A DNA stretch of 64,000 nucleotides from an uncultured Pseudomonadales bacterium (GTDB lineage: Bacteria > Pseudomonadota > Gammaproteobacteria > Pseudomonadales > Azotimanducaceae): positions 3,348,001-3,412,000 of the forward strand of contig OY282447.1 in NCBI GenBank assembly GCA_958296165.1. Direction: 5' to 3'. The notes under the pieces were generated by a model. The model made no database searches and was not told the DNA's origin. It was given only the letters and a program-made list of their open reading frames with translations. The position numbers were made by a program, and so were the translations under genes. Positions 47,533 to 49,560 of the stretch are shown here, piece after piece. The first letter of the stretch is position 1, and the number at the start of each line of letters is the position of its first letter.

Positions 47533-47579
47533 TGCCATCGGTTAAAGTGACGCCAAAATCCACGGAGCCTGATCCATGA
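47533..47579 (+). promoter_or_regulatory. Leader shared with the AhpD-like gene (copy 1)
   Basis: The 47 bases ending at the ATGA of the glutathione transferase have the same length and closely similar 5' half as 48432-48478, which end at the ATGA of the AhpD-like gene. The best-conserved part is TGCCATCGGTTA(A/G)AGT, followed in both by a TCCACGG box near the ribosome-binding site. It could be a shared promoter or operator with a TTA(A/G)AGT core. The 257 bp between the tRNA and this gene otherwise show nothing I can support. Confidence 0.45.
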
Positions 47580-48340
47580 TCGACGCCTATTACTGGCCGA
47601 CGCCGAACGGCTGGAAACTCTCCATCATGCTTGAGGAGTGTGAACTCGATTACCGCATTGTGCCGGTGGACATCGGCGGCGGTGGGCAGTTCACGCCGGA
47701 GTTCCTGCGCATCTCGCCGAACAACCGCATGCCGGCGATCGTTGACCACGAGCCGTTGGGCGGCGGCGAGCCGCTGGCGCTGTTCGAGAGCGGCGCGATT
47801 CTCGAATACCTGGCCGAGAAGACCGGCAAGTTCTTGCCGCGCGCGCCGCGGCAACGCTACCGGACGCTGCAATGGCTGCATTGGCAGATGGCGAACCTCG
47901 GGCCGATGATGGGCAACGCCAACCACTTCAAGAACTACGGCAAGAACCTCACCGACGATCCCAAGCAGCTGGAATACGGCACCAAGCGCTTCGTCGGCGA
48001 GGTGGATCGGCTCTCCGGCGTGATGGACGCGCAGCTCTCCGCCAACGAGTATCTGGCCGGCGACGCATACACGATCGCCGACATCATCAGCTGGCCGTGG
48101 GCATTCCTCATCCGTCGCGTAGTGGATGAAGGCGCTTGGGAGAAGTTCCCGAACCTGCACCGCTGGGTGTATCAGGTAGGCGGCCGGCCGGCGGTGGACA
48201 AGGGCCGCAGAGTAGGCCAGGAGCTGGGCAGCCGCGAGCGCACCGACGAAGAGGAAAAGGCGCGCCGAGAACTGCTGTTCAACCAAACCAACGACAAGGT
48301 GCGGGCAGCCCGGGAAGCAGCGGCCCAGGCAGCTTCGTAG
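47576..48340 (+). CDS. Glutathione S-transferase family protein (YghU/YfcG-like)
   Basis: A 254-residue cytosolic GST. The thioredoxin-like N-domain is IDAYYWPTPNGWKLSIMLEEC with NRMPAIVDHEP (cis-Pro) and LALFESGAILEYLAEKTGKFLP. The C-domain has WQMANLGPMMGNANHFKNYG, a nu-class-like motif, and EYLAGDAYTIADIISWPW, the N-capping box. Nu-class enzymes act as disulfide reductases or peroxidases. The Lys/Glu-rich tail after residue 225 is an extra helix. It shares a leader sequence with the AhpD-like peroxidase gene downstream, hinting at co-regulation in thiol or peroxide metabolism. Confidence 0.9.
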   Translation: MIDAYYWPTPNGWKLSIMLEECELDYRIVPVDIGGGGQFTPEFLRISPNNRMPAIVDHEPLGGGEPLALFESGAILEYLAEKTGKFLPRAPRQRYRTLQWLHWQMANLGPMMGNANHFKNYGKNLTDDPKQLEYGTKRFVGEVDRLSGVMDAQLSANEYLAGDAYTIADIISWPWAFLIRRVVDEGAWEKFPNLHRWVYQVGGRPAVDKGRRVGQELGSRERTDEEEKARRELLFNQTNDKVRAAREAAAQAAS

Positions 48341-48431: not shown

Positions 48432-48478
48432 TGCCATCGGTTAGAGTTGCGACCGTTCCACGGGGAGCCATGCCATGA
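48432..48478 (+). promoter_or_regulatory. Leader shared with the glutathione transferase gene (copy 2)
   Basis: This is the second copy of the 47-base leader, here with the GGGGAGCC ribosome-binding site. Seventeen of the first 20 bases match copy 1 at 47533, and both copies end at the start codon. Confidence 0.45.
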
Positions 48479-49560
48479 CCGACATTTCCGCGCCCAAGCC
48501 AACCGAGGTCAGCACCGCGTTGGCAGTGCGTGATGACGTATCGGCTGCCCACGCCGCAACGTTGCGCCGGTTCGCCGAGCCAGGCGGCTGGTGGAGCGCG
48601 GCCGATCGCCTAGCCATCGTCCGGGAAGCGCGCTCGGCGCCAGCCTGTCGGCTCTGTGCGCAGCAAGCGGCAGCGCTCTCTCCGGGTGCGGTGCAGGGCG
48701 AACACGACAACTCCGGCGTCCTGCCACCCGTCGCCATCGAAGCCATCCACCGCATCCGCAACGATTCCGGCCGCCTCACACGCCGTTGGTTCGACGACCT
48801 GATCGACATGGGCCTGCAACCGCAATCCTATGCGGAGCTCGTGAGCATCGTCGCCAGCGCGGTGATCGTCGATACGTTCGCGCAAGGCATCGGCGCGGAC
48901 ATGCCGGATTTGCCCGATGCGGAACCGGGCATGCCGTCGTTCGAGACCTCGCCAGATGTTGTAGACGCCGGGGCCTATCTGCCGATCGCGGCCACCGGCC
49001 GCGCCAACATCCTACGTTCCCTCGGCCTGGTGCCGAGTGCGTCGCGGCTGTTCTTCGAGACCTTCAGCCGCTCTTACTACATCCAGCCCGACGTGCGCTT
49101 TGCCATCGGCCGCCGCCAAGTGGAACTCGTCGCCTCGCGCGTCTCCGCCGTCAACCAGTGCTTTTACTGAACAACGTCGCACGCAGTGGCGCTCCGTGAG
49201 AGCAGCACGAAGTCTGGCCAAGCGGCCGATCTGCAAATCGTCACCGGAGCGCTGGACGGAGACGGGCGAGACGGAAACGTGCCGAGCGGCGGATTGTTGG
49301 CTGCGCTGGCGGAAGCCGTCGCGCGCTGGCACTGGCCGGAAGTCGCCGAGCTGCGCGAAGAGAGCGTGCAGCGGCTAGGCCCAGAGCAGACCTGCGACGC
49401 CATCCTGGTTGCCGCCGGCTTCAACGGCATCACTCGGGTCGCGGACGCCATCGGCATCCGCTTGGATCAACGGACCGCCGCTGCGTCGGTGGCGTTGCGC
49501 GCCGAAATCGGCATCGATGCATTCGCGCCGGCGCAGAAGTGGGCAAGCGGCGGCGCATAG
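48475..49560 (+). CDS. AhpD-like (carboxymuconolactone-decarboxylase-fold) peroxidase-related protein, candidate selenoprotein with in-frame TGA
   Basis: The frame from ATG 48475 reaches TGA at 49168-49170 (codon 232) and then stays open to TAG 49558-49560. Reading through gives 361 residues. At the TGA the sequence is ELVASRVSAVNQCFY-[TGA]-TTSHA. In AhpD the catalytic pattern is E-x11-C-x2-C-x3-H. Here E217, C229, the TGA codon 232 and H236 fit exactly, with TGA at the nucleophilic second Cys. The part after the TGA (LLAALAEAVARWHWPEV, then AAGFNGITRVADAIGIRLD) is typical of the C-terminal half of the same family, so this is one gene. A hairpin suitable as a SECIS follows. The alternative is a chance nonsense mutation or base error. 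The thiolase-like gene starts 12 nt downstream. Confidence 0.8.
49180..49198 (+). promoter_or_regulatory. Candidate bacterial SECIS hairpin
   Basis: CACG (49180-49183) pairs with CGTG (49195-49198). After a C-C mismatch, AGT pairs with GCT (one G-U pair) around the loop GGC (49188-49190). The loop begins with GG and lies 17 nt after the TGA. Bacterial SECIS elements are expected within about 16-37 nt, with a G among the first two loop bases. The stem is short, and no folding calculation was done. Confidence 0.4.

What the first reader, a model, noticed from the sequence alone, without database searches (positions are those of the whole stretch)
48475..49560. AhpD-like protein with TGA at the catalytic nucleophile: candidate selenoprotein
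Seen: the ORF has E217, C229, TGA at codon 232 and His236. This is the AhpD pattern E-x11-C-x2-(C)-x3-H with TGA exactly at the second (peroxidatic-type) Cys. The frame continues 129 codons with family-typical sequence and ends 12 nt before the next gene. Known: selenocysteine replaces catalytic Cys in redox enzymes, and AhpD-like selenoproteins have been reported from sequence surveys. Inference: this gene is recoded; a random stop landing on this one codon is unlikely.
Basis: partly seen in the sequence, partly recalled or inferred. Interest (0 to 1): 0.92.

Follow-up and report, generated by a model that had tools for sequence, protein, structure and literature searches.

The report
Known AhpD-type selenoprotein gene
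The stop-like TGA in this bacterial gene is almost certainly read as the rare amino acid selenocysteine at a redox active site, but this protein family is already catalogued as a selenoprotein, so the finding is correct and ordinary.

Summary
Observation and interpretation both hold. The frame 48475-49560 has one in-frame TGA (49168-49170, codon 232) in VELVASRVSAVNQCFYUTTSH, with E217, C229 and H236 at AhpD-like spacing. The TGA and these three residues are invariant in 28 of 28 aligned sequences: the window's gene and 27 homologues. A 200-genome search of the same bacterial family found the protein in 132; the 150 match rows listed (a capped list) all carry a TGA. Downstream lies a SECIS-like hairpin, GCUC-CGUGA-GAGC (49191-49203): over 53 sequences, 211 of 212 cells of its four pairs are paired, one pair covaries, and synonymous bases are restricted. 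The genome has selA-selB-tRNA-Sec in a row and a SelD. It is not new: the protein scores 383 bits (cut-off 175) against NCBIfam NF041238, AhpD_rel_CFYUT "alkylhydroperoxidase-related (seleno)protein", which a 2026 review equates with "hypothetical protein 1" of the 2005 Sargasso Sea selenoproteome. One extra: a YfcG-like glutathione S-transferase gene lies directly upstream in 10 of 13 relatives of this orthologue, hinting that glutathione recycles the C229-U232 pair. The substrate is unknown.

The parts
48475..49560 (+). AhpD-related selenoprotein gene, 361 residues with selenocysteine at 232
   Evidence: Translation with TGA=U; NCBIfam NF041238 383.4 bits, cut-off 175; TGA shared by 28 of 28 aligned sequences, own gene counted
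49168..49170 (+). In-frame TGA, codon 232: selenocysteine codon at the second position of the CxxU redox motif
   Evidence: invariant in 28 of 28 aligned sequences
49159..49182 (+). Codons 229-236, C-F-Y-U-T-T-S-H: predicted active site with the redox pair C229/U232 and H236
   Evidence: C229, codon 232 and H236 invariant in 28 of 28; PF02627 CMD match 212-252
49191..49203 (+). SECIS-like hairpin GCUC-[CGUGA]-GAGC, starting 20 nt after the TGA, with an invariant G at 49196 in the loop
   Evidence: Four pairs paired in 211 of 212 cells over 53 sequences; one pair is C-G in 48 and U-A in 5; synonymous bases restricted; folds alone at -4.7 kcal/mol
48646..48657 (+). Codons 58-61, N-terminal C-x-x-C, a possible second redox pair
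   Evidence: Present in 26 of 28 aligned sequences, absent in L016 and L017 (read by eye from the alignment; nearly invariant in the 17-sequence alignment)
47576..48340 (+). Upstream glutathione S-transferase gene, nearest to the YfcG/YghU type (GSH-dependent disulfide-bond oxidoreductases), conserved neighbour
   Evidence: PF02798, PF00043; NF010579 218.6 bits, below its cut-off of 332, so the type is a resemblance (the gene names YfcG/YghU are recalled); directly upstream, same strand, in 10 of 13 relatives of this orthologue

Best explanation
The gene encodes a selenocysteine-containing member of the AhpD/CMD superfamily (NCBIfam NF041238). UGA 232 is decoded as selenocysteine by SelB and tRNA-Sec, guided by a small hairpin that starts 20 nt downstream. 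The confidence given is for this identity. For the chemistry (about 0.6): the selenolate U232 attacks an oxidised substrate (a peroxide or a disulfide), forms a selenenylsulfide with C229 and is reduced again by a thiol, with E217 and H236 as the proton relay, as in AhpD. Shown by computation: the conserved UGA, the hairpin, the decoding genes and the family. Inferred: translation through the UGA, the redox chemistry, and glutathione as the reductant. The substrate is unknown.
For: NF041238 at 383.4 bits against a cut-off of 175. TGA, C229, E217 and H236 invariant in 28 of 28 aligned sequences, own gene counted. In a 200-genome search of the same bacterial family, 132 genomes match; all 150 match rows listed (the list was cut; rows counted by eye) contain a TGA. 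SECIS-like hairpin: 211 of 212 cells paired in register, against 58 to 125 when slid by 1 to 3 bases. Leu240 is only CTC/CTT, Arg241 only CGG/CGT and Ser243 only AGC/AGT, whereas the other conserved Leu and Arg columns listed use four or more codons and Ser224 three. selA, selB, tRNA-Sec(tca) and selD are present. By sequence, the nearest solved structures are AhpD / peroxidase-related proteins. Related cysteine proteins have Cys at the same place, C-x2-C-x3-H.
Against: No protein-level evidence was available here. The 48-nt stretch from the UGA does not fold better than shuffles (z +0.70). The pairs below the 4-bp stem are less well or poorly kept (48, 22, 38, 24 and 18 of 53 going outwards), and two of the four stem pairs never vary, so they say nothing. 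The 53 sequences are related and were picked by the CFY-TGA motif, so they count neither as independent events nor as evidence for the TGA itself. The single-sequence structure model failed (mean pLDDT 35). I saw no demonstrated activity for this family in the passages that I read.
Confidence: 0.96

Rival explanations
1. The TGA is a true stop: the gene is a pseudogene or makes a 231-residue truncated protein, perhaps with a separate downstream ORF from 49186.
For: A downstream ORF of 124 codons with a GTG start exists at 49186-49560. No proteomics was available.
Against: TGA at the same codon in 28 of 28 aligned sequences; the sequence after it is under the same kind of constraint as before it; a complete selenocysteine system.
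Confidence: 0.02
2. The TGA is a sequencing or assembly error for a Cys codon.
For: A Cys codon at this site would give a normal AhpD-type CxxC; related proteins have CFYC or CYYC.
Against: The same TGA in 27 homologues from other genomes, which were chosen without regard to the TGA.
Confidence: 0.005
3. The organism reads TGA as an ordinary sense codon (for example Trp).
For: None found.
Against: Five of nine genes checked in this part of the window, this one included, end in TGA (this one ends in TAG); the protein has a single TGA, and it falls where related cysteine proteins have Cys.
Confidence: 0.005

Closest known systems
NCBIfam NF041238 AhpD_rel_CFYUT, alkylhydroperoxidase-related (seleno)protein; 'hypothetical protein 1' of the Sargasso Sea selenoproteome (PMC1088965), so equated in the table of the review PMC13188914
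   Same: Near full-length match (residues 18-351 to profile 1-356 of 357) and the CFYUT motif; CxxU; a predicted SECIS is also reported for hypothetical protein 1 (figure legend; figure not seen)
   Different: Nothing of substance found. This orthologue has a GST gene directly upstream; 7 of 7 neighbourhoods of more distant homologues (31-46% identical) do not have it
Peroxidase-related enzyme TIGR01926 and solved AhpD-type proteins such as 6k40, 2oyo, 3c1l
   Same: Same E-x11-C-x2-C-x3-H core in the C-terminal half
   Different: Cysteine instead of selenocysteine in the relatives seen here (L033, L050, L082, L083); these three solved ones are 188-197 residues and match the C-terminal half only; P0001 scores 34 bits against the TIGR01926 cut-off of 81.8
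AhpD-like 1 (COG2128) and AhpD-like 2 (pfam02627) selenoproteins of the GOS survey (PMC2398784)
   Same: CxxU in an AhpD/CMD-type domain (table passage)
   Different: The 2005 and 2026 tables list AhpD-like and CMD-type selenoproteins apart from hypothetical protein 1; no sequences of these were compared here
AhpD of Mycobacterium tuberculosis (recalled, not fetched)
   Same: E-x11-C-x2-C-x3-H spacing (recalled)
   Different: Cys-Cys active site (recalled); the match of P0001 to the AhpD model TIGR00777 is negligible (13.6 bits, cut-off 191.95)

Membership tests
NF041238 AhpD_rel_CFYUT selenoprotein | Score above the curated cut-off over the full length | tested here: met
   383.4 bits against 175, profile 1-356 of 357
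NF041238 AhpD_rel_CFYUT selenoprotein | CFYUT motif with in-frame TGA | tested here: met
   CFY-TGA-T at codons 229-233
Bacterial selenoprotein | selA, selB, tRNA-Sec and selD in the genome | tested here: met
   Over cut-off for all four; tRNA-SeC(tca). The SelD is part of a 722-aa oxidoreductase-SelD fusion
Bacterial selenoprotein | SECIS hairpin just downstream of the UGA with a G in a small apical loop | tested here: met
   Conserved hairpin 49191-49203, loop G invariant in 53 of 53. [quoted passage not shown] Energy alone is not significant for the 48-nt stretch; no SECIS prediction program was run
Bacterial selenoprotein | Selenocysteine present in the protein | not testable with these tools
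   Needs mass spectrometry or 75Se labelling
TIGR01926 peroxidase-related enzyme | Score above the cut-off | tested here: not met
   34 bits against 81.8
AhpD proper (TIGR00777) | Score above the cut-off | tested here: not met
   13.6 bits against 191.95
AhpD/CMD superfamily (PF02627) | Score above the gathering cut-off | tested here: met
   24 bits against 23, residues 212-252, narrowly

The most novel reading that the evidence does not exclude
This selenoprotein and the YfcG-like glutathione S-transferase encoded directly upstream form a two-protein, glutathione-coupled seleno-redox system, with the conserved N-terminal CxxC as a second relay. In this bacterial family the protein appears to be selenocysteine-only (all 150 listed rows carry a TGA), although the 2005 survey counted cysteine homologues of hypothetical protein 1 elsewhere.
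Probability: 0.25. Interest if true: 0.35.

Novelty: already known. Interest (0 to 1): 0.15.

Why it matters
It confirms a correct raw-sequence call of recoding and adds a well-supported member, with comparative evidence for the SECIS-like hairpin, to a catalogued selenoprotein family for which I saw no known function. The conserved GST neighbour gives a testable lead on its reductant.

Tried and rejected
Rejected: pseudogene or truncation, sequencing error, and TGA as a general sense codon. The fold by energy of 49168-49215 was uninformative. A 51-nt stretch of L011 folded was chosen with rough coordinates and says nothing. The single-sequence AlphaFold model was useless (mean pLDDT 35), so no fold search was made. 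Genome contigs gave one distant relative (records near the window's genome may be left out there), plasmids none. The thiolase-like gene downstream was found in 0 of 20 fetched neighbourhoods at E 1e-10, although two of these (L092, L093) reach under 1 kb beyond the selenoprotein gene. For 12 of the 20 neighbourhoods I printed the nearest ORFs but did not annotate them. My first reading of the loci treated minus-strand loci as plus-strand and was wrong for those; one search replaced it. A class-wide draw gave 1 of 369 genomes, the own genome only. A phylum-wide draw gave the own genome plus two sub-cut-off relatives with Cys at the site, of 398. In one search, 2 of 13 genomes of other families of the order match, both with TGA. 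So in this sampling the family is rare outside the window's bacterial family.

Full report
Observation. The window frame 48475-49560 translates without a stop except one TGA at codon 232. The distance to the next gene (12 nt) and the 129 codons after the TGA are also right.

Family. Pfam gives PF02627 (CMD/AhpD), 24 bits with a cut-off of 23. NCBIfam gives NF041238, AhpD_rel_CFYUT, "alkylhydroperoxidase-related (seleno)protein", 383.4 bits with a cut-off of 175, over nearly the whole profile. The model's name spells the motif seen here. I read passages, not whole papers, of four publications; the other hits I saw only in the listing. PMC1088965 (2005) reports "hypothetical protein 1" with CxxU from Sargasso Sea data; its Table 2 gives 4 selenoproteins and 7 Cys homologues there, and 0 and 5 in complete genomes. 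PMC13188914 (2026) lists [quoted passage not shown] as NF041238, CxxU. PMC2398784 and PMC1794560 list other AhpD-like selenoprotein families. A full-text search for NF041238 found one paper, and one for CFYUT found none.

Machinery. The genome is one 5.07 Mb contig. It has selA at 3103141-3104484, selB at 3104496-3106319 and tRNA-Sec at 3106392-3106480, consecutive and on one strand. ARAGORN calls the tRNA SeC with anticodon tca. SelD is the C-terminal part of a 722-residue fusion with a pyridine nucleotide-disulfide oxidoreductase (TIGR03169 416.5 bits, TIGR00476 242.6 bits; TIGR04369 fusion_not_SelD also hits, below its cut-off at 477.6 against 700). PMC2398784 describes Ndh-SelD fusions (passage).

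Conservation. Of 38 genomes searched with the protein, the own one included, 25 have a match. I aligned 28 of the 30 loci brought in by that call. L009 is the window's own gene, so there are 27 homologues, a few of them nearly identical to each other (L025-L027). The two left out were L032 (a gene split over two matches, which carries CFYU) and L033 (a distant cysteine relative). All 28 have TGA at codon 232, and E217, C229 and H236 are invariant. Four (L010, L017, L019, L020) carry a TAG at the very C-terminal end of the aligned range, where the gene simply ends. In 200 genomes of the same family, own included, 132 have NF041238 above its cut-off; all 150 rows that the tool listed (it cut the list; I counted the rows by eye) contain a TGA. 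I checked the position of the TGA only in fetched loci: the 28, and further loci by the motif CFY-TGA, which gave 53 distinct sequences in all (28 of the first set, own gene and L032 counted, and 25 new). That motif search selects for the TGA. L065 and L078, which it missed, have it too (CFYU and CYYU). Cysteine versions were seen only in L033, L050, L082 and L083; L033 is TIGR01926-type, L082 and L083 fall below the NF041238 cut-off.

Signal downstream. Counted from the T of the TGA as 0, bases 23-26 and 32-35 form GCUC/GAGC around the loop CGUGA in the window (49191-49203). In 53 sequences, 211 of 212 cells of these four pairs are standard pairs, against 58 to 125 of 212 when slid by 1 to 3 bases. 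One pair is C-G in 48 and U-A in 5 (L023, L054, L060, L062, L076), with no mismatch. The outermost is G-C 43, G-U 8, A-U 1 and A-C 1. The other two never vary. The loop G is invariant. The next pairs outwards are kept in 48, 22, 38, 24 and 18 of 53. The codons are restricted in a way the protein does not require: Leu240 CTC 27, CTT 1; Arg241 CGG 14, CGT 13; Ser243 AGC 19, AGT 9, while the conserved Ser224 uses only TCN and the other conserved Arg and Leu columns use four or more codons (28 sequences). The sequences are related, so the counts are not independent events. By energy the 48-nt stretch is unremarkable (z +0.70); the 27-nt piece has z -1.11 and the 15-nt hairpin alone z -2.57.

Neighbourhood. 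A GST gene (best NF010579, 218.6 bits, below its cut-off of 332) lies directly upstream on the same strand in 10 of 13 fetched neighbourhoods with AhpD identity of about 55% or more; all 10 are of the same genus. In L096 it is on the same strand about 0.8 kb upstream, in L094 nearby on the other strand, and in L095 not found. It is absent in 7 of 7 neighbourhoods of more distant homologues. The downstream thiolase-like gene was found in none of the 20.

Mechanism. By analogy with AhpD (spacing and roles recalled), U232 would be the attacking residue, C229 the resolving one, and E217/H236 the proton relay. A profile of 17 of the aligned sequences finds AhpD and peroxidase-related solved structures for the C-terminal half (6k40 E 8.5e-11, 2oyo, 3c1l). 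The N-terminal half has a CxxC (58-61) in 26 of 28 sequences, and no Pfam match at E 0.1. The reductant and the substrate are not known; glutathione is suggested only by the GST neighbour.

Verdict. Observation confirmed, interpretation supported, family already known.

Noticed in passing
L105:2062-4230 (genome C1 4406061-4408229): SelD is fused to an N-terminal pyridine nucleotide-disulfide oxidoreductase (722 aa), a reported type of fusion; the fusion model TIGR04369 'fusion_not_SelD' scores 477.6, below its cut-off of 700.
   Followed up: partly
48646-48657: A CxxC pair in the N-terminal half of the selenoprotein (C58, C61), present in 26 of 28 aligned sequences but not in L016 and L017.
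   Followed up: partly
47576-48340: A YfcG-like GST gene directly upstream of the selenoprotein is kept in 10 other genomes of the genus, but not beside the 7 more distant homologues examined.
   Followed up: partly
G015 (5 matches), G007, G019 and G023 (3 each): Several related genomes carry three to five copies of this selenoprotein family, each listed with a TGA.
   Followed up: no
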